From Pycnococcus provasolii (lineage: Eukaryota; Chlorophyta; Pseudoscourfieldiophyceae; Pseudoscourfieldiales; Pycnococcaceae), in the NCBI GenBank assembly GCA_938743325.2, contig OW568873.1:496001-560000 (forward strand): DNA of 64,000 nucleotides, in the 5' to 3' direction. Positions within the stretch are counted from its first letter, which is position 1. Every line of letters begins with the position of its first letter. The position numbers and the translations under genes are program-made. Below, one piece after another: positions 1,011 to 13,175 of the stretch. The notes below the pieces were generated by a model that saw only the letters and a list, made by a program, of their open reading frames with translations, was not told where the DNA came from and did no database searches.

Positions 1011-3521
1011 ATGGCGTCGTCGTCGCTGTCGTCGTCGTCGTCGTCGGCGGCGGCGGCCTCTTTTATATCTTATGTAGGAATAGCTGCTTGCTCGGTGGTC
1101 CTACCTGTCTTAAACATGTTGATATTGGCCGGTTCTCTTCCACCACCACCGGTTGCCTCAAAATCAGCTGTGAGAAGAAGAAGAAGAAGAAGGAGAAGTT
1201 TATCGGCAGCAATGTGGCAATTTGGCGTCTTATATACGTTCTCTGCGCGCCGCTTCTCCTCCTCCTCCTCCGCCGCCACCGCTGCAACAGCACCAGCATC
1301 AGCATCAGCGGACACAGCAAAGCTCACTCACCACCAAATATCATCAAATATGGACGCCTGCACGCCTCATCATCACTTCTCACCAACTCTCCTCCAAAGC
1401 TCGTCAGAAGAACGCACACAAGCACACATGGGAGAGCACAGCGTCTTCGCCCGCCAAAACGCCAAAACCATAATACCCACAAACTTCAAACACCCTTCGA
1501 ACGAAGACGCGGAAACATTGAGAAAGAAGTATTACGGAAAACTCAAAAGGTGGAGAGATAAAGCTCCAACGTGCTGTGAACCAGACTCCTCCTCCTCCTC
1601 CTCCTCCTCCTCGCCACCGCGACAACGACAACAACCAACAAACACAAGCACGTGGACGCTTGAGGACGATGAAACGTCCTCTTCAACGTCCTCTTCAACG
1701 TCCTCTTCAACGTCCTCTTCAACGTCCTCTGAAACGTCCTCTTCAGAAGACGCAACCACCACCACCACATGCACCCCCTGCAGCACACCGCGCCTGAAAA
1801 CTCATGCTTTAGGCTCTTGTGCAGTCGTCTCACTCAGTGATACGCAACTGAGAAGGAAGCCGCTTGGGCACGAGATTGACTCTCACGACACGGTCGTGCG
1901 ACTCGGGTACGCACCTACCGAAGGGTACGAAAAGTACGTCGGCAGACGGGTGGACGTCACACTCATACGCATGCACACGCGGAAGCGTGACTGCAAGCTC
2001 GCACACGACGTGTGGCGCGAACAGGGTGGCAAGGTGGTGCCGAAGAAGTTTTATGTGCTGCTTTCTGGAGAACGAAAGGGAATCAAAACACGATCGCTTG
2101 CAACAGCGTCTGGGAGCCACAGCTGCACGCCGGCGTCGATGCCAACGTACAAGAACAGACCTGTGCTGTACCTCGAGGATCCACCGGAACAACTTCTTGA
2201 CGTGCGCGACAGCCTCTTCGACAATCTCGCCGCAGAGTATGCCTTCAGAGAGGACAGGAGCAGCAGCAACGACACAGCCACCAATGATGCGTACAACCCG
2301 AAAGGTGGTTTCAAGCCAACGAGCGGGTACTACACCATCTACAGCCTACTCGGTTCGCGGCTGTGCAAGTCAATCACCCTCTACGGCTTCTACGACGATT
2401 ACCAGGCGCTGCACTACTTTGCGTGGCAGCGGTCTGACGATGGGTCGTCGTGGGTGCCGCGCGTGCACAACACCACGGCAGAGAAGGGCAGGAATGCGAA
2501 ACGTGCGCCAGTTCCCTCGCATCCGCTCAAGCCAAATCACGTCAACGGAGCAGAGAGCTGGGTCTACCGCACGCTTATGGCGACTGGTAACGTGTGCGTT
2601 AGAACAGCACCGATCGAGACGAGTAAGGACGACGACGACGACAGCGACGACGGCACGGCAAGTCCAAACCCAAAGAATGATCCAACGAAAGTTGACCATC
2701 TCAAGCCTATAGGTACATCATGCAAAATCCAACCCAATCATCTCGACTACACCGCGAACAAAATTGCAAATGCCACGATGAAAAACGACCCATATCAGCA
2801 CGTGTACATTTCCGAAATTTTTCACAAAGATGTGTACAGGTGCATGATGGACCATCTGCCAACGAACAACAAGGCGTACGGGCGGCTGAAAGCTGGCGTA
2901 GAGCGCTACATGATCACCCTGCTTTCGAACAAGCGCAGCATGCCCGGCAAGACGTCGAGCTCGGGGAAGTTTGTGCCTCTCCTCAGCAGGGACAAGGATC
3001 GCCACGGCTTTGACGCGGATTTCTGGGGTGCATTTGCCAAGGCGTTTGGGTCCGAGAGGTTTCGAGATCTATGGCTAAATCTCTTCGATAACACACTTTC
3101 CTTGAGAAAGGCTGATTGGAGAAGCTTTGCGGGAAGTAATCTTGGATTCAAAATGGAGCTGAACCGGGACCGTGGCGGATTTGAAATTGGGCCGCATACC
3201 GACAGCCACGGCAAGTGGGTGACTGCTCTCTACTACCTGCCTCGCCAAGAAAGAGTCGGCGGCGGAACATGTGTCGTGCGAAGTCGCAGTGGACGCGTGC
3301 AGCACGGAGATAGCTCTTGGGAAACTTGGAATGATCCGGACTTTGAAATTGTGGATCGGGCCGCCTTCCACCCCAACTCCGTATTCGCCTTTGCTCCATG
3401 CCAGTCGAGTTGGCACGCGGTGGAACGCATGTCATCGTCCGCAGCATACAGAGATACGATCCAAAGCTTCGTCATGACTCTTGGCGGCGACAAGGTGAGA
3501 AAGGCGAAATGTGCCAATTGA
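1011..3521 (+). CDS. GT29 sialyltransferase-like / 2OG-Fe(II) oxygenase fusion protein
   Basis: This encodes 836 residues from the ATG at 1011; an in-frame ATG lies at 966 and the frame stays open further upstream. A hydrophobic segment at about residues 15-42 looks like a type II signal anchor, so a Golgi lumen location is inferred. A long Ser/Thr-rich stem follows, including poly-Ser and a 12-bp coding minisatellite. The GT29 domain shows sialylmotif L from about residue 269 (EIDSHDTVVRLGYAPT), motif S near 431-460 (PTSG, then LCKSITLYGF), an HYFAW motif III and a VS motif HVNGAE (H510, E515). The C-terminal domain is a 2OG-Fe(II) oxygenase with the H729-x-D731 pair, distal H802 and R814. 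The usual GNSG of motif L reads SLSD, so the donor may not be CMP-sialic acid. Glycan transfer coupled to hydroxylation is inferred. It converges with a related fusion gene 83 bp away. Confidence 0.85.
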   Translation: MASSSLSSSSSSAAAASFISYVGIAACSVVLPVLNMLILAGSLPPPPVASKSAVRRRRRRRRSLSAAMWQFGVLYTFSARRFSSSSSAATAATAPASASADTAKLTHHQISSNMDACTPHHHFSPTLLQSSSEERTQAHMGEHSVFARQNAKTIIPTNFKHPSNEDAETLRKKYYGKLKRWRDKAPTCCEPDSSSSSSSSSPPRQRQQPTNTSTWTLEDDETSSSTSSSTSSSTSSSTSSETSSSEDATTTTTCTPCSTPRLKTHALGSCAVVSLSDTQLRRKPLGHEIDSHDTVVRLGYAPTEGYEKYVGRRVDVTLIRMHTRKRDCKLAHDVWREQGGKVVPKKFYVLLSGERKGIKTRSLATASGSHSCTPASMPTYKNRPVLYLEDPPEQLLDVRDSLFDNLAAEYAFREDRSSSNDTATNDAYNPKGGFKPTSGYYTIYSLLGSRLCKSITLYGFYDDYQALHYFAWQRSDDGSSWVPRVHNTTAEKGRNAKRAPVPSHPLKPNHVNGAESWVYRTLMATGNVCVRTAPIETSKDDDDDSDDGTASPNPKNDPTKVDHLKPIGTSCKIQPNHLDYTANKIANATMKNDPYQHVYISEIFHKDVYRCMMDHLPTNNKAYGRLKAGVERYMITLLSNKRSMPGKTSSSGKFVPLLSRDKDRHGFDADFWGAFAKAFGSERFRDLWLNLFDNTLSLRKADWRSFAGSNLGFKMELNRDRGGFEIGPHTDSHGKWVTALYYLPRQERVGGGTCVVRSRSGRVQHGDSSWETWNDPDFEIVDRAAFHPNSVFAFAPCQSSWHAVERMSSSAAYRDTIQSFVMTLGGDKVRKAKCAN
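1675..1746 (+). repeat. 12-bp coding minisatellite
   Basis: Six head-to-tail 12-bp units, four identical (CGTCCTCTTCAA) and two variants at the 3' end, encode a Ser/Thr-rich stretch in the stem of the GT29 fusion protein. A CTC trinucleotide run at about 1588-1611 encodes poly-Ser in the same stem. Both are likely to vary in length between strains. Confidence 0.95.
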
Positions 3522-3604
3522 GAAGAAAAACATCGAGAATGTACACACACATACAAAGTATTTTGTACACAATTACAGTTACATTAGTTTTTATTTCAAA
3601 TTCA

Positions 3605-6334
3605 TTACAACAACCTCTTTGACGTGCGAGAAGGTTCGTCCACCACACGCTGAATGATTCCCGCTTCCATCAAATCACGCATGCACTTCTTCTCATATTT
3701 TATAGTCTGGCTCTGGCCAAGCAGACGCCGTACACCACCACCACCACCACCCGCGGCGTACTTCCATTCGTCAATCATCCAGTCCCTCTTATCGAGTGTA
3801 ACGTAGTCGTCCGGCCTTTTGGATTTCCTAATCTTCACGCGCCCCGACGGCATCTTCCTTTTCGACACACCTTCCGTGTAGTACCAAGCCTTGATATCCG
3901 GCTTGGTATCATACACCCCAAAGCCGTACATAGAGATGCTAGCGCAATTGTGAGCTAGGAATAGCATGGAAAGGAACCCAGACGTGGGCCCGTGCCCCAC
4001 GTCTCGAAAGTAAGGAGTCTGCGCGTACTCCTTCGCGAACGACGGGTGCATCACGTGAACCTTCTTCTCATTGAGACGCTTCAAATCACGCGACTTGCAT
4101 GGTGGTCCATGAATGCACCATTTCCCAGCCACCACAGTCTCGTTCTCCTGCTCGCGAAATCCTTCGGAATAATTGTTCGTGTAGCGAAGTGTCGTCTTCG
4201 ATCCTACGTCATCCTCGAAACCCCTCACGGGTGCATTGTTGATGCGCATCACCACGTCGTGCTGATCGATTTCGCGCCCCAATCCGGACTTGGCCATGGC
4301 AGAACTACTGCTGACAAGTGCACATGTGCGAAAGACTTGAAAACCAGCTGGTCCGTGAATTCCATGGGGGGGAAGTCCTTGCAACGAAGCGTCGCTGAGC
4401 GATGCACCCCACGGCGTGTCGCGAAAGGCATCTGCGCCAGACGCTACCATTGTCAGGTCTCCTGAAGAAGTGACATGAGGGAATACGCCGCTCACGCAAG
4501 CTGGCAGTGCTGCGCGCGCTTGGCATAAAGGAGTGCTTTCCTGCACAGATGGACACTTGTTGCCATCTTGGTGGTCGTTCCTCCGTGTCGCAGTGGTTGC
4601 AGCAGCGGCATCTGGCTGTATCACCCGCTCATCTTTCGCTCCGTCACCACCACTTTGCTCCGCCATGACACACTTCGCCTTCTTACCATATTTCTCGATG
4701 GCGTCGTCGAAGCGAACTTTTTTCCCCTTCGCCTTGTCGGCAAAGTACGTCCGCACCTTTTTGTTATGCAAGGCTCGGACCGTGATGAACGCCTGAAGCG
4801 TGTCCCGTGCCGCATTACCAATTGGGCGCACTGCATGCCAACTGGACTGGCAGGGTGCGAAGATAAAAGCGCTGTTCGGAAGGAACGGCGCCGTGTTCAC
4901 CTCCTCAAACTCACCGGCGATGGACGAGTTTTTCCAGTCCGAGCCGTACGTCATGCCGAAACCACCATCCTCGATCCGTGATCGTGACAGGAACGTACTT
5001 GTGCCCACGTGCTTCGCCGAATCGTCCCTGGGCAGGTAGTAGAGAATCGTGAGCGCTTTCTCGTTGGAATCCGTGTGTGGCGTGATGCCGTAATCCTTGC
5101 CATCGCGCGCGAGGTCGAGACGGTGCTCAAATTGCCCGCTGCTAATCTCCACCTCGAGATCTCCGAATCGCGCCGCGAGCGAGGGTTCGAATTTTCGCAG
5201 CCACCTGTTTCTGATGTCGTCTCCCATGAACGTTTTGGCAAAGCTCGCCCAAAACCTGTGCTTCTTTGCGTTTGGAACGCGCTGCACGCTGCCGCCTTCG
5301 CCCTTGACTCTGATGTAGAACCGATTATTCTTTTTCATCGCGTGATAGCGGTTCGTCTGCTCCGGCGTCGGAAGCGCGTTGAGCATGCAAGCGTAGAGCG
5401 ACTCGCTGAACACATTACGCACGAACATGTGCGCGAACGGCTTGTAGTCAACCTTCGTCGCGTCGATGCGATCGAGCGTGTACTTGAGCATCTTTTCAAA
5501 TGCCACCTCACTGCAGTCGCCGTCCGTCTGCTTCGGCGGCCGCTCGCTGACTTCACCGCTGGATTCGCCATCCGGCAGCGAAATTCCACTCGGCAGCTTG
5601 AGCGACCCGTCCTTGATACGAGCGTCTGTGGGATAGACGTAATCGCCGTCCATTTTTATGCGCGTCTGGTAGTTGACTTGGATGGCTCTCCTGTCGCCCT
5701 CGAGCAGCTTGTATCCGTGAAATCCGCTCTTCTTGTTCTGAAACGCTGCCGGGTTCTTGAAGGCGAGCAGGTTGCCTCCGTACGAGTCAACCTGTACCTC
5801 GTAGTCGTCGATATTCCTCGACCGAAGCAGCCTCAGCTTTCCGCCGTCGCCGTCGCCGTGCGTCCACTCCTCGTTGAGGTACACGAGAACGCTTACTCGT
5901 TTGCTCGCGTCGTCAGCGTGAATGCGTCCGTCCATCTTCCAGCTGACACCTCGCATAGATACGCGCGTGAATGTGTTTGCCAAGCTGACGTCGAACGCCG
6001 TTTCCAGCACGTTTCTGAACTCGAGCGACTTGAGTTGTTTTAGCAGGCGGTCAAACTCGCCGTAGATCTCCCCTTTCTGCGCAAGTTCCACCTCGTCGAC
6101 GTGCGCCTTGGTTTTGAGTGACGGCGGGAAGTCTCGGTTGATATGCTCAAGGTGCTTGACGAATTGTGGGATAACGAAGTGCGCAAACGGCTTTTTCACG
6201 ACGCGCGCGTTTTTGATGAGCTCGAGGTCGAAGAGAGATGGCGGAGAGGTGGAGGCGGAGGCGGAGGCGGCACCACAAGCTACCGTTAAGACTGTTAAGG
6301 CGACATGAACGAAACAGAGCAAGAAGGACAACAT
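3605..6334 (-). CDS. Tandem 2OG-Fe(II) oxygenase / GT29 fusion protein
   Basis: This encodes 909 residues from the ATG at 6334, chosen because it opens a clean signal peptide (MLSFLLCFVHVALTVLTVA); the frame is open to 6532. Domain 1 is a 2OG-Fe(II) oxygenase with H139-x-D141, distal H206 and an Arg at 215-216. Domain 2 is a second one with H420-x-D422, distal H500 (WHAV) and R510. Domain 2 closely resembles the oxygenase of the neighbouring convergent gene (shared FAPCQSSWHAV and PHTDS). The C-terminal third is GT29: motif L from about residue 671 (EIDQHDVVMRINNAP), motif S near 781 (GPTSGF, then SISMYGF) and WYYTEG. The canonical GNSG is SSSS, and the VS His is apparently Asp (DWMIDE, 851-856). 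Domain order is the reverse of its neighbour. A secretory-pathway location is inferred. Confidence 0.85.
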   Translation of the reverse strand: MLSFLLCFVHVALTVLTVACGAASASASTSPPSLFDLELIKNARVVKKPFAHFVIPQFVKHLEHINRDFPPSLKTKAHVDEVELAQKGEIYGEFDRLLKQLKSLEFRNVLETAFDVSLANTFTRVSMRGVSWKMDGRIHADDASKRVSVLVYLNEEWTHGDGDGGKLRLLRSRNIDDYEVQVDSYGGNLLAFKNPAAFQNKKSGFHGYKLLEGDRRAIQVNYQTRIKMDGDYVYPTDARIKDGSLKLPSGISLPDGESSGEVSERPPKQTDGDCSEVAFEKMLKYTLDRIDATKVDYKPFAHMFVRNVFSESLYACMLNALPTPEQTNRYHAMKKNNRFYIRVKGEGGSVQRVPNAKKHRFWASFAKTFMGDDIRNRWLRKFEPSLAARFGDLEVEISSGQFEHRLDLARDGKDYGITPHTDSNEKALTILYYLPRDDSAKHVGTSTFLSRSRIEDGGFGMTYGSDWKNSSIAGEFEEVNTAPFLPNSAFIFAPCQSSWHAVRPIGNAARDTLQAFITVRALHNKKVRTYFADKAKGKKVRFDDAIEKYGKKAKCVMAEQSGGDGAKDERVIQPDAAAATTATRRNDHQDGNKCPSVQESTPLCQARAALPACVSGVFPHVTSSGDLTMVASGADAFRDTPWGASLSDASLQGLPPHGIHGPAGFQVFRTCALVSSSSAMAKSGLGREIDQHDVVMRINNAPVRGFEDDVGSKTTLRYTNNYSEGFREQENETVVAGKWCIHGPPCKSRDLKRLNEKKVHVMHPSFAKEYAQTPYFRDVGHGPTSGFLSMLFLAHNCASISMYGFGVYDTKPDIKAWYYTEGVSKRKMPSGRVKIRKSKRPDDYVTLDKRDWMIDEWKYAAGGGGGGVRRLLGQSQTIKYEKKCMRDLMEAGIIQRVVDEPSRTSKRLL

Positions 6335-6744
6335 TTTGGTTATACGCACGCCAAACGTTGGCGGTTGCGGCCGCCAAGAACGACGCGACGACGCCACTAC
6401 GAGGCGCAAACGCAACCCGTCGCCCACCAACACGCGCACCGGCATCGTCGCCCGTGGTGCTTGATCGCTCCGAATCCAAATCAAGCTGCCAAGAACAGAA
6501 TAGGACGGGACGACGCGGATGAGAGTGACCACCCATCACAACGCAGCTTTAGCACGTGCTGTACGGCCATCAGGGCCATGTGCAATTGTGACCATCGTGA
6601 CCAACGAACGTCGAAGCTCCTTCATTAGTACTACCATTCATTTGATGAGTGTGATTCTCACGTATTGTAAAGTGGTATACTGTACACGAAAAATAGTCTA
6701 GTATTACACCTATGAAGTTACACAGCCTTAGTGTGACACCTCTG
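6335..6744. other. Intergenic region between two minus-strand oxygenase genes
   Basis: This 410-bp stretch lies upstream of the tandem oxygenase/GT29 gene and downstream of the stand-alone oxygenase gene. It should hold the promoter of the former and the 3' end of the latter. The part nearest 6600-6745 is AT-rich. No further gene, repeat or telomere-like motif was seen. Confidence 0.5.
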
Positions 6745-7926
6745 TCAGAACCACGGCACGCTGTTCAATCCGTTATGTCCCATGTCCGCAAACGTCTTGC
6801 GATACTGGCCGAGCACTTTTTCGAGAAGGGCCACCTCCTTGTCGTGCATCGCGACGAGCGCGTCGGAGTTCGAGTGAGACGTAAGCAGGCCCGCACGCCA
6901 CGCGTCCGCGAAGTGGAGCTTGAGCATGTGGCGATAGAGAGCGGGGTGGCAGAGATATTCGCGCACGGCGTCCTCGTCTGAAAGCGAAGGAGGAGCCGGC
7001 GCCTTCGGAACGCCCCCGCCGTCGTCCTGTGCCCAAAGCCAAAACGTCAGTAAGCGTCGCACGCCGCTGCGTATGGGCATCGTCGCGTGGAGCATGCGTC
7101 GGCTCGAGAAAAGCACCGCGGTTCCCAAGGAAGGAGTGATGGTCTGCTCACCGTGCTGTGGATACGGCATGAGATTGAGCTCGCCACCCTCCACGTCATC
7201 GTCACTCAAGTAGACGAGGCAAGTCAGCACGCGCTCGTCCACACCCTCAGCTGTGTCAAAGTGCATGGGAAAGTGGTGGTCAGCCGGCGCGTCAGGCGGC
7301 GGCGCGGCTGTGCGCTGTACTTTAGCGCTGATGCCGCGAGATTTTAAGTTGAGCGATGGACAATACACGCCGAAGAGGCTGTTGAGCGCGTGCGCCTCGC
7401 GTGCAAACTGATACAAGAAGGGCGCGTGGATACGTGTCGCGTCATCTGCAAGCTCAGCCTCGTACACGCCACGCTTCGCCACTCGCGCCTGCTTTCCGTC
7501 CTCACCCGGCTTCGCGAGGTGCGTGCTATTTTCATGGAATCCTCCAAACGCGTGCAGGTTATCAATGTCATCACGCAGACGAATGAGCGTGCTCTTGACC
7601 TTACTATTATTATTGTCGTCACCACCACCATGTAAGACATTAGAAACTGCAAATCCGTTTTTCAGAAGGGAATCGCACGTGGTTTGCGTGACGATAAGAC
7701 GAGCGAGAGACTCTGCTAATAAGGACGCCTCCGAACATGGGGTAGAAAGAGCAGGTGGAAGATGCGGGTCGTCGAAAACCGTGCGTGCGGCAGGCAAGGC
7801 GCCTGGTGGAGGTGGTGTGGCTTCTGGTGGGAATATGGATGCTACTGAAGACGTGAAACGCTTGAAGGACTCCTCAGGCAACAAACGCACGACACGGATG
7901 CCGCGGCGGAACATCGTCATCGTCAT
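6745..7926 (-). CDS. Prolyl 4-hydroxylase-like 2OG-Fe(II) oxygenase
   Basis: A 393-residue protein with a C-terminal double-stranded beta-helix oxygenase fold. The iron ligands are visible in HFPMHFDTAEG (H-x-D) and in the distal LHATMP histidine, and the 2-oxoglutarate Arg in VRRLLTFWL. The TCLVYLSD and GGELNLMP stretches are typical of the prolyl 4-hydroxylase-like branch. The first 80 residues are Pro/Ala-rich and could be a targeting region, though no clear signal peptide is seen. Two more in-frame ATGs follow within five codons (MTMTMF), so the exact start is uncertain. It is the fourth 2OG oxygenase domain within 7 kb and is divergent from the RING gene, with only 98 bp between start codons. 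Confidence 0.8.
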   Translation of the reverse strand: MTMTMFRRGIRVVRLLPEESFKRFTSSVASIFPPEATPPPPGALPAARTVFDDPHLPPALSTPCSEASLLAESLARLIVTQTTCDSLLKNGFAVSNVLHGGGDDNNNSKVKSTLIRLRDDIDNLHAFGGFHENSTHLAKPGEDGKQARVAKRGVYEAELADDATRIHAPFLYQFAREAHALNSLFGVYCPSLNLKSRGISAKVQRTAAPPPDAPADHHFPMHFDTAEGVDERVLTCLVYLSDDDVEGGELNLMPYPQHGEQTITPSLGTAVLFSSRRMLHATMPIRSGVRRLLTFWLWAQDDGGGVPKAPAPPSLSDEDAVREYLCHPALYRHMLKLHFADAWRAGLLTSHSNSDALVAMHDKEVALLEKVLGQYRKTFADMGHNGLNSVPWF

Positions 7927-8024: not shown

Positions 8025-9269
8025 ATGTCCTACGAGTGCCCTATCTGCCTCGACGCAGAAGCGCTCGCCGAAGCGCCGTTGACGCTAAGTTGTGGTCACA
8101 GCTTTTGCAAGCGATGTCTCGCCTTGCACGTCGGGAAATCTTTGGATTGCCCGACGTGCAGGGCGAGGCTACCGCGCGGCGGCGGACTCCCTGCGGTGAA
8201 CGTGTTTCTCAGGGACGTGCTCGCGGAGAGGCTCGCGGCGACCGCAAAGGTCGCACCGATGACTCGGGCAACGACGAGCGCCGCGGCGGCCGCCGCACCG
8301 ACGACTCGGGCAGCAACGACGGCGGCGATGACAAGCGGCGGAGCGGCACCGGCGACGCGTCGGGCAACGGCGGCGGCGGTGACGGCAACGGCAGCAGCGA
8401 CAACAGCACCGGCGACTCGGGCAACGGCGGCAAAGCGCAAGCGCGGCGACGCGGGCAACAACGGTGCGTCCACGTCGGCAGCAACTGCGGCGGTAGTGGC
8501 GGTGAAGGAGGAGCCGCAAGGCTCGGCGCTCGTCGGGCGGCGAGTGTGGCGCATCCTGCATAAGCACGGCGTGCGCGCCATGGGCAGGGTTGCAAGGGCG
8601 GAAGCGAAGGGGTACCTCATCGTCTACGAGAACGCCTTGTTCGACGACGAGATGGTGACGCACGCCGAGGTCCGCGAGTCGCTCGTCGACGACGAGGACC
8701 TCGGCGTGCCTGCAATCACGCGGTACCTGTTCACGCGGCGCGGCGCTGGCGCGCGCGGATCGCACAGCAGCACGATCTCGGAGGTGCTAGGTGGATCCGT
8801 CCAAACGACGGTGCCGACGACGCGCGACGGACCAAGCAAATACAACAAGTGCAACTACTATGTCGCATGCTTATTGGACTGGCAATCGACGGTTCCGCCG
8901 CGCCCAGGCGCTGCAGGCGAGCTGCTTGGCGACCAACTGACGCCTCGTGACGTTGTGCCAATCTTCGTCACGAGGCGTCTAAAAAACGCCAAGGGCCATG
9001 GGAGGCGATGGGAGTACTGCGGCAACTACCGGCGCGTCGACGACGACGGCGTCGAGGAAATGTACGTCTACAAAAGGATATCTGATGCCGAGAAGGAGGT
9101 GTGGGTGCACGGGATAGCCGCAAAATATAAAATACCCCCTGAGCAAATGCGTGCGATCTTTGAATCGCGCGCAGACAGTGTGGTATCTTGCCCAATCGAG
9201 TTCGTCAACTATGACGAACGCCTCTATGCCGCGCTCGTCGCAAAGGAGAAGGAATTGTTTGGCTTGTAA
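8025..9269 (+). CDS. N-terminal RING finger protein with conserved C-terminal domain (putative E3 ubiquitin ligase)
   Basis: A 414-residue protein opening with a textbook C3HC4 RING finger (C5, C8, C23, H25, C28, C31, C42, C45), so ubiquitin ligase activity is likely. Residues about 75-150 are an Ala/Thr low-complexity linker ending in a basic KRKR patch that could be a nuclear signal. Residues about 170-225 (GRRVWRILHKHGVRAMGRV, then GYLIVYENALFDDE) have the look of a Tudor-like chromatin reader barrel; this is inference from pattern only. The remaining 180 residues, including RRWEYCGNYRRV and the C-terminus, look folded and conserved but I cannot name the family. It converges on the beta-galactosidase gene, with stop codons about 20 bp apart. 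Confidence 0.75.
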   Translation: MSYECPICLDAEALAEAPLTLSCGHSFCKRCLALHVGKSLDCPTCRARLPRGGGLPAVNVFLRDVLAERLAATAKVAPMTRATTSAAAAAAPTTRAATTAAMTSGGAAPATRRATAAAVTATAAATTAPATRATAAKRKRGDAGNNGASTSAATAAVVAVKEEPQGSALVGRRVWRILHKHGVRAMGRVARAEAKGYLIVYENALFDDEMVTHAEVRESLVDDEDLGVPAITRYLFTRRGAGARGSHSSTISEVLGGSVQTTVPTTRDGPSKYNKCNYYVACLLDWQSTVPPRPGAAGELLGDQLTPRDVVPIFVTRRLKNAKGHGRRWEYCGNYRRVDDDGVEEMYVYKRISDAEKEVWVHGIAAKYKIPPEQMRAIFESRADSVVSCPIEFVNYDERLYAALVAKEKELFGL

Positions 9270-9290: not shown

Positions 9291-12200
9291 TTACAAAGCT
9301 ACTTCTATAGCATCATTTTGTTGTATGTGTGTTCCAAACGCGACACCCACATTCTTCCGTAAAGAAATCAACCACGGCTTCTTCGTGTGCGGTGCCCAGC
9401 TCGTGTCACCACCCAAGCCCATGTGCATGCTGTCCAAGTGCACGTACACGCTATCTTCGACAGCGAGCTCATCGGCGTGTGACGTGTGCATCACACGAGA
9501 CATCGATGCGCGCCTCGCAGATGCACACGCGAAGGGCTCACCGTGCAGAGGCGAGAATGTGATGTGCGGCGATGATGTGTCGCTCACGAGCGTGAGCTGA
9601 CGCACGTTTGTGCGAGCGCCACTCTCGCTCGGCTTGATGTACGGCGTGGCCATCGCATTAAGCGGGATGTCGTAAATGCCAGGGAGCGCCGATTCACGTC
9701 GGTCGGGGTAGCACTCATGAGGTCCGTCGCCGTGCCAGCGCACCGTGTCACATCCCTTTGACACAATCTCAGCACAGACACCCACACGAGCCACGGGCGG
9801 CCACGCAACCTCAGGAGTGAGCACGTAGGCGGTGGATATCGTGCATGCATTGCAGTCGAGCGCCACATGCAGCGCAATGCGACCCACGCGACAACCTCCG
9901 CACCACACTGCCATGGCAACTGCCACGGCATCGCGACCTGCAGGTTGCGCTCCCATGCAGCGTAGCTCCGCGCAATCTAGCCCAAAGTCTCGCCAGCGCG
10001 ACGCGAAGGAACCACGTGGCCCGCTCGTTTCGCCACCCTCGTCGTTGTCTGTGGGTGCACGGTAGAAGCACGGCGCGAGTGATGCGAAGATCACGCGCTT
10101 AGTTCGACCTCCTCCGCAAATCCAAGTGCACTGCTCAAGGCGAGCACCCTCATCCAGCCGAATAGTCACGTGCATGGAAGCCGTGGGACTTTGAATGCGC
10201 CAGATCACGCAGCCTGTTGAAGCGCCTGTGCCAGCCACCTGGAATGATTTCTGCCAAGAACGACCTTCGTCGAGCGAAAATTCACTCAGCGTTGTCGAAA
10301 TCGCGCGTACGGCACGAGGAACAGGCTCAGCTTTCCGCACGACAAGTCGATCGAACGCAACGACTGGACACGTGCTACGAGAACGACTTGCTGCAACGGC
10401 ATCGCGAGGGGGCATCATGCATGAGCCAGCATTTTCACGGCATCTTGCACGACACACTACCGTGGCGATCGATACCACTGTGGATGCCGCGCGCTTCATA
10501 TGCGATGCATCGAGCGCAAATGGTGCAAAGCGATAATTCCATTCACCTTCTTGCTGCTTCGTGGCGCTCGACACGGCTCCGAAGGGCATCTCCGCAGTGA
10601 GTACCACACCGTCGTCGTCGTACAGCTGCCACGTGAAATCAAGCTCATCTGCCGGCGACACGAACGACGTGTAAGGCAGCACCACCACATCACTAAGAGC
10701 ACCGTCCGACCACACGAAGTGAAGAGGCTGCATGCAGTGTCTAATTTCAAAGCATGCTGGCTTGGGCACGCGGTCAGGGAAGAAGATGCCGTTGATGTTG
10801 AAGTTGGCATCGTGAGGGTACGCTTCGTCATGTGGCTTGAAATCGCCGCCGTAGCGATAGGGTGGAGGCTGCGACGTCGCCGCCAACTTTGGTCGACGCG
10901 CCGCGTTCGACCGATGCCAGCGGAGGTCGTCGTCGAACTGAGCAACCCACGCGCGGTACGCATCCGGTGCATTGCTCCCGCAGTCACCTTCGACGTCGTC
11001 GATATGCTTACGATGGCTGTCAGCAAGCAGTCCTTGGTCAATCATATCCCAGATGAAACCGCCTTGGAAGGCGGGGAATTGCTGCCTGCGGCCCGATCGA
11101 CCTCGCACTGTATCCCAGTAGTCGGAGAAGTTGCCATTCGAATTTCCCATGGCGTGAGAATATTCGCACTGAATGAGAGGCTTCGCTTTGCTGTCGCGTC
11201 CGTCGTGGAACGATGCGTCATCCCACACATCCGCCTCGTCCTCGTCGTCCACGTCGTCACCTCGCGAGGACATCAACCTCTTGAACTCGCAGTACTTCTC
11301 GCACATCTCGCTGCTCCAGTACATGGGAAAGGCAATATCAGAGACTGTGCCCGCGCCATCGTTCACGCCCGCACCTTCGTAGGCGATCGGCCTTCGGTGT
11401 GCCGCGTACGCGTCCGCAAACTCCTGATGGCGCACGTATGCATACATCGCCGCAATCGTGGGTCCGCTACCACTCTCGTTCCCAAGACTCCACATCACAA
11501 TGCTGCAGTGATTTCGATCTCTTGCCACCATGCGCGCCGCACGCTCCATGTAGTGCGCGATCCACCGATCGTCGTGTGCGAGAAAGTGCCGCGACAGCTT
11601 CGCGTGTCGCGCGGGAGCGCGCGAAGACACCCATGGCAGCGGACTAATGTCACTGCCTGAGGTGCTCAGGTCCATGCCGTGCGTTTCGAGATTCGCCTCG
11701 TCGACGACGAGCAAGCCGTAGAAGTCGCACGCGTCGTACAGTGCGCCGTGATTAGGATAGTGGCTCGTGCGGACGGCGTTGAACCCGTAGTCGGCGAGAA
11801 GCCGAACGTCGTCCCAAGCATCACGCGGTCGGATCGCCTTGCCTCGATGCGGGCAGTGTTCGTGCCGATTCACGCCGCGAATTTCCACCGGCTGTCCATT
11901 TAGCGTGAGCATCGCACAAGGCTCGCGTGCGATGCGAACTGTGCGAAATCCAACGCAAAATGCCTCCGATTCGAGCACATGCTCTCCTTGGTGTCGCAGT
12001 GTTACGGTGAGCACGTAGAGGTGTGGTGCCTCGGGTGACCAGAGTCGCACGGAAGAATCGTCATTCGCGTCATCAACGGCAAAGCGATGTCTGCATCGAT
12101 ACATGCCATAACGTCGGTTTGGCATGATTTCCGCTTGTTTGCATGACAGTCGCACGAGTTCCTTCGGGGGCACAAATGCGGCAGATGGCGACATGAACGC

Positions 12201-13175
12201 GTCTGTATGCGGTGCACCACCGACAGCATGAAATGGGCGCAGTGCGACGTCAACTTCCAGAGAGTTCCACCGCTCATCGTCGTCGACGCCAACATGCACG
12301 CACGCGGCGAGCACACCTGTCGCGGTGGCTGTGAAGTTGACATCCTCGATGCGCGCAAGTTTTGGCTTGGCACGTATCCAAACTTCTCTTGTGAGACCTG
12401 AGAGGTGCCAGTGGTCCTGGTCCTCGAGGAAGCTTCCTGCCGACCACCTGCGAACGACGATGGCGATACGGTTGTTGGTTTGGAACGACCCATGTTCGGT
12501 GACGTCGATTTCCAGGGGCAGTTTTGCGTCGCTTCCGCTTCCGACGTGCTTGCCGTTGAAGTAGACGTCTGCGCAGCTGTCCGCCGCCTCGACGCACAGC
12601 ACGATTCGTTTTTGTCTCCACGTCTCTGGCCACGGCGCAACAGTCGTTCGAAACACGCCCGTAGGGTTGTGGCGCGGCACGTTCGGCGGGTCGATTTTGA
12701 TGGGGTACGTGATATTCGTGTATACTGGCGGGTCGTTGTTCGCGCACGACGGGTGGAGTTGCCAGCACATGGGCACGTCGATGACGTTGTTGAGGTTGCC
12801 ATCGTCGTCATCGTCATCATCATGGTCGGAGGAACATGTCGAGTTGACGAGGTGCAGGATACGTGACTCATCATCAGCACCTGTAGAAGAGGCCTGGTCC
12901 TCCCTAGATGAGCACAATACCACTAACGACCACCTAAACAGACGCAGACAAGAATCAGAAGAAGAATCACCACAAGGAGGAGGAGGTATGAGAGAACCAG
13001 AAACTGCGAAGACATATGCGTCACACTCGTTTGAAAATGAAAATAAAGGGACGTGTGATTTCTGCCGACGTTCTCCTACCACCAGCATATGGGACAAAGA
13101 CGACACAGACAAAGACGACAAAGAGGACGCCATAGGTGAAAAACAGGTGTTTGACATGCGAAGAATGAAGGGCAC
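9291..13175 (-). CDS. Beta-galactosidase, LacZ-type glycoside hydrolase family 2
   Basis: This encodes 1294 residues. From about residue 134 (VPMCWQLH, VYTNITYPI) it follows E. coli LacZ: jelly-roll and immunoglobulin-like domains, then a TIM barrel with GVNRHEHCPHRGKA, acid/base E567 in WSLGNES and nucleophile E671 in CEYSHAMGNSNG. The C-terminal small-chain domain has FYRAPTDNDEGG, GPHECYPDRRES and MGLGGDTSWAPH. It should hydrolyse terminal beta-D-galactosides. The first 130 residues are Ser-rich with an Asp run and lack the LacZ segment containing the SLNG-W-F motif, so the true start may lie further along, or an upstream exon has been missed. No signal peptide is evident. Its length exceeds the usual 1020-1050. 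Strongly conserved catalytic residues suggest it is functional. Confidence 0.88.
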   Translation of the reverse strand: MPFILRMSNTCFSPMASSLSSLSVSSLSHMLVVGERRQKSHVPLFSFSNECDAYVFAVSGSLIPPPPCGDSSSDSCLRLFRWSLVVLCSSREDQASSTGADDESRILHLVNSTCSSDHDDDDDDDGNLNNVIDVPMCWQLHPSCANNDPPVYTNITYPIKIDPPNVPRHNPTGVFRTTVAPWPETWRQKRIVLCVEAADSCADVYFNGKHVGSGSDAKLPLEIDVTEHGSFQTNNRIAIVVRRWSAGSFLEDQDHWHLSGLTREVWIRAKPKLARIEDVNFTATATGVLAACVHVGVDDDERWNSLEVDVALRPFHAVGGAPHTDAFMSPSAAFVPPKELVRLSCKQAEIMPNRRYGMYRCRHRFAVDDANDDSSVRLWSPEAPHLYVLTVTLRHQGEHVLESEAFCVGFRTVRIAREPCAMLTLNGQPVEIRGVNRHEHCPHRGKAIRPRDAWDDVRLLADYGFNAVRTSHYPNHGALYDACDFYGLLVVDEANLETHGMDLSTSGSDISPLPWVSSRAPARHAKLSRHFLAHDDRWIAHYMERAARMVARDRNHCSIVMWSLGNESGSGPTIAAMYAYVRHQEFADAYAAHRRPIAYEGAGVNDGAGTVSDIAFPMYWSSEMCEKYCEFKRLMSSRGDDVDDEDEADVWDDASFHDGRDSKAKPLIQCEYSHAMGNSNGNFSDYWDTVRGRSGRRQQFPAFQGGFIWDMIDQGLLADSHRKHIDDVEGDCGSNAPDAYRAWVAQFDDDLRWHRSNAARRPKLAATSQPPPYRYGGDFKPHDEAYPHDANFNINGIFFPDRVPKPACFEIRHCMQPLHFVWSDGALSDVVVLPYTSFVSPADELDFTWQLYDDDGVVLTAEMPFGAVSSATKQQEGEWNYRFAPFALDASHMKRAASTVVSIATVVCRARCRENAGSCMMPPRDAVAASRSRSTCPVVAFDRLVVRKAEPVPRAVRAISTTLSEFSLDEGRSWQKSFQVAGTGASTGCVIWRIQSPTASMHVTIRLDEGARLEQCTWICGGGRTKRVIFASLAPCFYRAPTDNDEGGETSGPRGSFASRWRDFGLDCAELRCMGAQPAGRDAVAVAMAVWCGGCRVGRIALHVALDCNACTISTAYVLTPEVAWPPVARVGVCAEIVSKGCDTVRWHGDGPHECYPDRRESALPGIYDIPLNAMATPYIKPSESGARTNVRQLTLVSDTSSPHITFSPLHGEPFACASARRASMSRVMHTSHADELAVEDSVYVHLDSMHMGLGGDTSWAPHTKKPWLISLRKNVGVAFGTHIQQNDAIEVAL

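What the first reader, a model, noticed from the sequence alone, without database searches (positions are those of the whole stretch)
1011..6334. Two convergent genes fuse GT29 sialyltransferase-like and 2OG-Fe(II) oxygenase domains in opposite order
Seen: gene 1 is TM-stem-GT29-2OG; gene 2 is signal-2OG-2OG-GT29. The motifs L and S of GT29 and the H-x-D...H...R set of each oxygenase are all visible. The oxygenase of gene 1 and the second of gene 2 share FAPCQSSWHAV, so they are related copies. Established: GT29 enzymes transfer sialic acid or, in some plants and algae, are sialyltransferase-like with other substrates; 2OG oxygenases hydroxylate sugars, peptides or lipids. Inference: a locus where glycan transfer and hydroxylation of the same acceptor or donor product are coupled, reshuffled by duplication. 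I know of no described GT29-2OG fusion.
Basis: partly seen in the sequence, partly recalled or inferred. Interest (0 to 1): 0.85.

Follow-up and report, generated by a model that had tools for sequence, protein, structure and literature searches.

The report
Sialyltransferase-like enzymes fused to oxygenases
A tiny marine green alga carries two neighbouring genes that each join a sialyltransferase-type sugar enzyme to oxygen-using enzymes; the genome suggests the sugar involved is Kdo rather than sialic acid, which makes them candidates for building an unusual acidic sugar of algal scales and plant walls.

Summary
The fusions look real by sequence. Gene 1 (1011-3521, +) is anchor-stem-GT29-2OG; gene 2 (3605-6334, -) is anchor-2OG-2OG-GT29. 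Contig sizes identify the genome as Pycnococcus provasolii CCAP190/2. Gene 1's GT29-2OG part recurs in four other protein clusters (45-47% identity over 97% of it). Gene 2 is annotated as one gene in Pseudoscourfieldia marina; no other fused relative was found. The GT29 modules come from different subfamilies, so two separate fusions are likelier than a local duplication (not proven). Neither GT29 is canonical: gene 1 has Gly for a motif-L Asn, gene 2 has Gln for the catalytic VS His. All three oxygenase modules keep HxD...H...R. The shared oxygenase family has no Pfam hit; bacterial relatives adjoin an FkbM methyltransferase in 27 of 33 loci, and its closest solved structures are PolD and PasI, enzymes of 8-carbon sugar acids (weak by sequence). 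The genome shows no NeuB but has KdsA and two KdsB genes, so CMP-Kdo is the likely donor. Best reading: Golgi proteins that oxidise Kdo-type glycans. Boldest: they make Dha from Kdo. No activity was tested.

The parts
1011..3521 (+). Gene 1: anchor-stem-GT29-2OG fusion, 836 aa (P0001); start may be the in-frame ATG at 966
   Evidence: open frame; relatives of the GT29-2OG part P0005-P0009
1074..1130 (+). Predicted membrane anchor of gene 1 (aa 22-40)
   Evidence: hydropathy 2.34 over 19 residues
1782..2600 (+). GT29 module of gene 1 (aa about 258-530)
   Evidence: PF00777 58 bits; PDB sequence matches to ST6Gal1 and ST3Gal1, E 7.6e-7
1905..1907 (+). Motif-L residue Gly299 where paralogues have Asn
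   Evidence: N in 27 of 28 aligned paralogues with a letter there; G in gene 1 and P0006-P0009
2538..2555 (+). Motif VS of gene 1, H510-x4-E515, retained
2601..2720 (+). Asp/Ser-rich linker between GT29 and 2OG
   Evidence: one-codon length difference between P0001 and P0005
2721..3518 (+). 2OG oxygenase module of gene 1; H729/D731/H802/R814 at 3195-3197, 3201-3203, 3414-3416, 3450-3452
3605..6334 (-). Gene 2: anchor/signal-2OG-2OG-GT29 fusion, 909 aa (P0002); a start at 6445 corresponds to the 946-aa NCBI model
   Evidence: open frame; P0003 annotated as one gene
6275..6334 (-). Hydrophobic N-terminus of gene 2 (signal or signal anchor)
   Evidence: hydropathy 2.35
5615..6226 (-). First 2OG module of gene 2 (H139/D141/H206/R216)
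   Evidence: PF13640 42 bits; PasI E 0.00046, PolD E 0.0018; one other weak hit in the genome
4655..5512 (-). Second 2OG module of gene 2, same family as gene 1's (H420/D422/H500/R510)
   Evidence: 118.5 bits, 37%
4370..4654 (-). Low-complexity linker between 2OG-2 and GT29 of gene 2
   Evidence: open frame; GC3 falls to about 0.5 here
3608..4369 (-). GT29 module of gene 2
   Evidence: PF00777 99 bits; ST3Gal1 E 4e-18; fold match to 2wnf
3707..3709 (-). Gln876 in place of the catalytic VS His
   Evidence: His in 25 of 27 aligned paralogues with a letter there; Glu881 retained
3884..3886 (-). Trp817 in place of the motif III His
   Evidence: its closest relatives L040/L041 also have Trp

Best explanation
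Both genes encode secretory-pathway (probably Golgi) proteins that oxidise a sugar of Kdo-type surface glycans. The GT29 module transfers (gene 1) or mainly recognises (gene 2) an ulosonic-acid glycan, and the tethered 2OG oxygenase(s) hydroxylate or oxidise the sugar placed or held there. Shown by sequence: the open fused frames, the complete iron/2OG ligand sets, the altered GT29 signature residues, no NeuB match and the presence of KdsA and KdsB. Inferred: Golgi location, CMP-Kdo as donor, a sugar rather than a protein as oxygenase substrate, and the link to scales or wall.
Confidence: 0.45

Rival explanations
1. LH3-like enzyme: the 2OG module hydroxylates an amino acid of a cell-surface protein and the GT29 module glycosylates the new hydroxyl or a sugar on it.
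For: One chain with hydroxylase and glycosyltransferase activity is known: mimivirus L230 and LH3 (PMC9546862 passages; domain orders recalled). Next-best folds are protein hydroxylases OGFOD1/Tpa1 and PHD2. Weak YhhC match of gene 2's first oxygenase.
Against: The GT is GT29, whose characterised members act on sugars (PMC10225777 passages). The oxygenase family adjoins FkbM methyltransferases in bacteria, and its best structure matches are sugar-acid enzymes.
Confidence: 0.2
2. The GT29 modules are inactive and serve as glycan-binding or targeting parts; only the oxygenases are enzymes.
For: Gene 2 has Q for the catalytic VS His and W in motif III; gene 1 and P0006-P0009 lack the motif-L Asn kept by 27 of 28 aligned paralogues with a letter there. 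All oxygenase ligands are intact.
Against: Gene 1 keeps motif III His and VS His-x4-Glu, as do P0006-P0009. Relatives of gene 2's GT29 (L040, L041) keep the VS His although they too have W in motif III.
Confidence: 0.25
3. Open-frame artefact: gene 2 (or both) are separate genes read through, or an in-frame intron lies in the linker.
For: GC3 is 0.48-0.56 in gene 2's linker (codons 551-700) against about 0.7 before it, and 0.48-0.54 in gene 1's (526-600), though gene 1 has such values elsewhere too; no RNA at hand; no second species group with the gene 2 order found.
Against: Gene 1's order recurs in P0006-P0009. NCBI annotates gene 2 as one protein. A separate GT29 in gene 2 would have no anchor of its own. 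The linker of gene 1 differs from that of P0005 by a whole codon.
Confidence: 0.07

Closest known systems
GT29 sialyltransferases (ST3Gal1, ST6Gal1) and the plant GT29 Kdo transferase RCKT1/MGP2
   Same: PF00777 match, sequence and fold matches to solved sialyltransferases, motifs L and S
   Different: Fused to 2OG domains; motif-L Asn or VS His replaced; no NeuB match in the genome. RCKT1 itself was not aligned here
PolD (polyoxin) and PasI 2OG oxygenases of octosyl-acid nucleosides
   Same: First-ranked solved relatives by profile and fold
   Different: 21-22% identity in the structure alignment; bacterial enzymes; substrate of the algal modules unknown
Lysyl hydroxylase/glycosyltransferases LH3 and mimivirus L230
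   Same: One chain joins a glycosyltransferase and a 2OG oxygenase
   Different: Different GT family; protein substrate; no such domain in the Pfam scan
Expanded GT29 families of Bathycoccus and Chloropicon
   Same: Many GT29 genes in a small prasinophyte genome
   Different: The passages seen describe a C-terminal GT29 after a TM and stem in almost all Bathycoccus genes; 'oxygenase' does not occur in either main text
FkbM-associated bacterial 2OG proteins and viral MptE-MT-FkbM-2OG proteins
   Same: Same oxygenase family, 26-28% identity to gene 1's domain
   Different: Partner is a methyltransferase or MptE-like domain, not GT29

Membership tests
GT29 (CAZy) | Profile match over curated cut-off | tested here: met
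   58 and 99 bits vs 23
GT29 (CAZy) | Fold of solved sialyltransferases | tested here: met
   Foldseek 2wnf E 5.8e-11 (TM by target 0.53) for gene 2; 5bo9 and 2wml E about 2e-6 (TM by target 0.42-0.43, rmsd about 9) for gene 1
GT29 (CAZy) | Catalytic VS His | tested here: inconclusive
   Differs by gene: gene 1 keeps H510-x4-E515; gene 2 has Q876, so not met there
GT29 (CAZy) | Motif-L Asn of R-x-N | tested here: inconclusive
   Differs by gene: gene 2 keeps N699; gene 1 and P0006-P0009 have G, so not met there
Sialyltransferase (uses CMP-sialic acid) | Sialic acid made by the organism (NeuB) | tested here: not met
   0 NeuB matches; KdsA and two KdsB present; uptake of sialic acid not excluded
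2OG-Fe(II) oxygenases | Double-stranded beta-helix fold | tested here: met
2OG-Fe(II) oxygenases | HxD...H...R ligand set | tested here: met
   Complete in all three modules
PolD/PasI octosyl-acid oxygenases | Acts on an 8-carbon sugar acid | not testable with these tools
   Needs an assay
PolD/PasI octosyl-acid oxygenases | Sequence similarity beyond fold | tested here: inconclusive
   E 0.0027 (PolD) and 0.099 (PasI) for the shared family; E 0.0018 and 0.00046 for gene 2 domain 1
LH3/L230 lysyl hydroxylase-glycosyltransferases | Collagen-type GT and lysyl hydroxylase domains | tested here: not met
   At E up to 1 Pfam lists GT29, 2OG-FeII_Oxy_3, and sub-threshold 2OG-FeII_Oxy_4 and DUF3201 only
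Plant RG-II Kdo transferase RCKT1 | Closest kinship to RCKT1 within GT29 | not tested
   No plant GT29 was aligned here

The most novel reading that the evidence does not exclude
The fusions are the missing Dha-forming enzymes of green algae: Kdo, put on the glycan by a GT29 (the fused one or a neighbour), is oxidised in place by the tethered PolD-like 2OG oxygenase, which cleaves C7-C8 and leaves the seven-carbon diacid 3-deoxy-lyxo-2-heptulosaric acid, so that no activated Dha donor would be needed.
Probability: 0.12. Interest if true: 0.92.

Novelty: new variant of a known kind. Interest (0 to 1): 0.66.

Why it matters
Kdo and Dha are rare acidic sugars of plant pectin (RG-II) and prasinophyte scales. 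How Dha is activated is open (PMC12168206 passage: nucleotide form undefined; PMC11288761 passage: activated form to be identified). A conserved chain that joins a GT29 to an oxygenase close in fold to C8-sugar-acid enzymes gives a concrete protein to test. It also adds a pairing to the small set of glycosyltransferase-oxygenase fusions, and it stands in a genome with a large 'sialyltransferase' family and no match to the sialic acid synthase.

Tried and rejected
Local duplication as origin: not favoured. GT29 modules lie in different subfamilies (gene 1 clan 100/99; gene 2 with L040/L041 97/94), but holding gene 1's clan and gene 2 together is not rejected at 0.05 (p-AU 0.053), and the oxygenase tree is unresolved. 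P0010, without a GT29 match but 47% identical to gene 1's oxygenase, leaves open whether the gene 1 fusion was gained late or lost there.

Repeat-borne origin of gene 2's GT29: its GT29 relatives L038/L040/L041 lie in dispersed repeats, but gene 2 shares no DNA with them at E 1e-5; dropped.

Searches: the shared oxygenase profile found no relative in prokaryote genomes; the viral member as query found 33 loci. One phage record matched at 24.7% (MW202512). P0004, a fish protein, covers 6% of gene 2 and was set aside. The model of gene 2 is poor overall (pLDDT 58.1; much of its first oxygenase under 30), so only its second oxygenase and GT29 were used. PHROGs had no match for either gene, NCBIfam only the weak YhhC match. 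In the structure re-alignment of gene 1 the rows cover the oxygenase half; no lysyl hydroxylase is in its 50 rows, which excludes nothing. The viral fold library gave 2OG and sialyltransferase matches and was not used further.

Rows dropped before counts: 5 of 36 fetched GT29 loci (L036, L045, L047, L048, L050) had no match to gene 2's GT29 at E 1e-3 and are not in the motif counts; L038 was left out of the GT29 tree; 117 of 123 chosen neighbour ORFs, from 28 of 33 bacterial loci, went into. The FkbM profile was built from the neighbours of six of the loci it then counted.

Full report
WHAT IS THERE. The window is bases 496001-560000 of contig 13 of a 32,333,900-base genome in 46 contigs. Contig sizes and number match the Pycnococcus provasolii CCAP190/2 assembly ucPycProv1.2 (44 chromosomes plus two organelles, chromosome 13 of 0.87 Mb; PMC11130579, outline and section 5 read). 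Two long open frames face each other with 83 bp between them: gene 1 at 1011-3521 (+) and gene 2 at 3605-6334 (-). Pfam finds GT29 in both and 2OG-FeII_Oxy_3 in the first oxygenase of gene 2. The gene 1 oxygenase and the second one of gene 2 have no Pfam hit. They belong to one family with five copies found in the genome; the other three stand in proteins without a Pfam match. Two of these have near-identical database copies with a hydrophobic N-terminus (P0011, P0012); the third shows one by eye.

ARE THE FUSIONS REAL? A search of 5.8 billion proteins with residues 255-836 of gene 1 found four clusters (P0006-P0009) with the same GT29-2OG order at 45-47% identity over 97% of the query, from unnamed sources, and a 99% identical one (P0005). 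P0005 differs from the window by one whole codon in the linker. For gene 2 the only full-length relative is P0003, annotated as one 946-aa 'glycosyltransferase family 29 protein' of Pseudoscourfieldia marina. Against: third-position GC is low in both linkers, there is no RNA, and gene 2's order is known only from this species group. A GT29 cut off from gene 2 would have no anchor of its own.

THE GT29 MODULES. The genome search gave 174 GT29 matches, as a lower bound; merging the listed rows by eye gives roughly 115-120 places, the list being cut. I fetched 36 of them, 20 from the top and 16 from the foot of the list, and could align 31. The R-x-N Asn of motif L is N in 27 of the 28 that have a letter there (H in one); gene 1 and P0006-P0009 have G. 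The VS His is H in 25 of 27 with a letter; gene 2 has Q, with the Glu kept. Motif III His is H in 22 of 31; gene 1 keeps it, gene 2 has W as do L038, L040 and L041. That the VS His is the catalytic base is from PMC10225777 (passages). So gene 1 keeps the catalytic pair but departs in motif L, consistently across its relatives, and gene 2 has lost the base. Nearest paralogues differ: gene 1's GT29 has none above 42.4 bits (self 652), while gene 2's matches five copies at 126-134 bits. In the tree (36 rows) gene 1 and relatives form a 100/99 clade and join L035/L039/L042/L044 at 98/98; gene 2 groups with L040/L041 (97/94). Forcing gene 1's clade and gene 2 together costs 20.3 log units, p-AU 0.053. 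Two separate fusions are therefore favoured, not proven. The oxygenase tree does not resolve; pairwise, gene 2's copy is 37-41% identical to the other nine algal sequences compared.

RELATIVES ELSEWHERE. A scan of viral contigs found one locus, and a second scan with it found five more contigs, two of them nearly alike at the match. In three contigs (L053, the same contig as L052; L054; L055) one chain of 887-903 aa joins MptE-like, a methyltransferase domain (under its cut-off in L055), FkbM methyltransferase and this oxygenase. In bacteria 33 loci were found; an FkbM methyltransferase lies on the same strand within 400 bp in 27 of 33. Among 117 neighbouring ORFs the families most often matched are FkbM (15), TPR repeats and CoA-transferases; the first 25 of 122 families hold no ulosonic-acid gene. 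FkbM methyltransferases often act on sugars (recalled), so this association fits a sugar substrate without proving it.

WHICH SUGAR? NeuB has no match in six frames; KdsA is present in two exons of 181.6 and 160.9 bits (each alone under the cut-off of 314); both CMP-sugar synthetases found are KdsB equivalogs (213 and 211 bits vs 155.2). RCKT1 of Arabidopsis is a likely Kdo transferase by mutant analysis, with assays outstanding, and plant GT29s are reported not to use sialic acid (PMC12168206 and PMC11288761 passages). Prasinophyte scales contain 5-O-methyl-Kdo and Dha. Kdo is thus the likely donor sugar. Sialic acid uptake is not excluded, and the assembly report gives BUSCO completeness of 86.9%. 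Chloropicon has 59 GT29 genes with no scales seen, so the link to scales is open.

MECHANISM. Best reading (0.45): anchored Golgi proteins that couple recognition or transfer of a Kdo-type sugar with its oxidation. The boldest reading (0.12) is on-glycan conversion of Kdo (C8) into Dha (C7 diacid) by a PolD-like reaction. Against it: Dha also occurs in land plants, yet no hit of the two searches bears a land-plant name (the hits bear no organism names, and sensitivity is limited), and residues for sugar binding were not compared. Rivals are an LH3-like protein modifier, inactive GT29 modules used for binding, and a read-through artefact.

NOVELTY. Paper searches for sialyltransferase with 2-oxoglutarate, alga and fusion (five papers listed), Pycnococcus with sialyltransferase (none) and glycosyltransferase family 29 with oxygenase, fusion protein and domain architecture (at least three of the four terms, 10 of 64 listed) showed no description in their listings; the library holds open-access papers only. 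The kind (GT plus 2OG in one chain) is known from LH3 and L230; this pairing of families is, as far as these searches go, undescribed.

Noticed in passing
L038, L040, L041 (G000 contigs 37, 44, 22): Dispersed multi-kilobase repeats, 81-95% identical over long pieces, that carry a GT29 piece; in L041 it lies beside a BspA-like repeat gene (name recalled from the repeat motif). The L038 GT29 copy holds in-frame stops.
   Followed up: partly
L053, L054, L055: Viral-contig proteins of about 900 aa joining MptE-like, methyltransferase, FkbM methyltransferase and a 2OG oxygenase.
   Followed up: partly
L059-L091: Bacterial 2OG genes of this family overlap or adjoin an FkbM methyltransferase in 27 of 33 loci; L082 has both in one open frame.
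   Followed up: yes
window 6745-7926 (-): A further 2OG gene next to gene 2, prolyl-4-hydroxylase-like by PDB match.
   Followed up: partly
window 9291-13175 (-): A glycoside hydrolase family 2 (beta-galactosidase-type) gene close to the fusion pair.
   Followed up: no
window 8025-9269 (+): RING finger joined to DUF6697 in one frame.
   Followed up: no
G000 contig 13:429944-430636 and contig 1:1006367-1007065: Two KdsB genes in one genome; the second might activate another ulosonic acid such as Dha (speculation).
   Followed up: no
G000 contig 20:566411-568863: A GT29 copy with stops and a PF13640 oxygenase lie 1.5 kb apart on opposite strands.
   Followed up: no
G000 contig 30:242510-242908: 2OG domain in a 992-codon open frame, the only other (weak) match to gene 2's first oxygenase; its other domains were not seen.
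   Followed up: no
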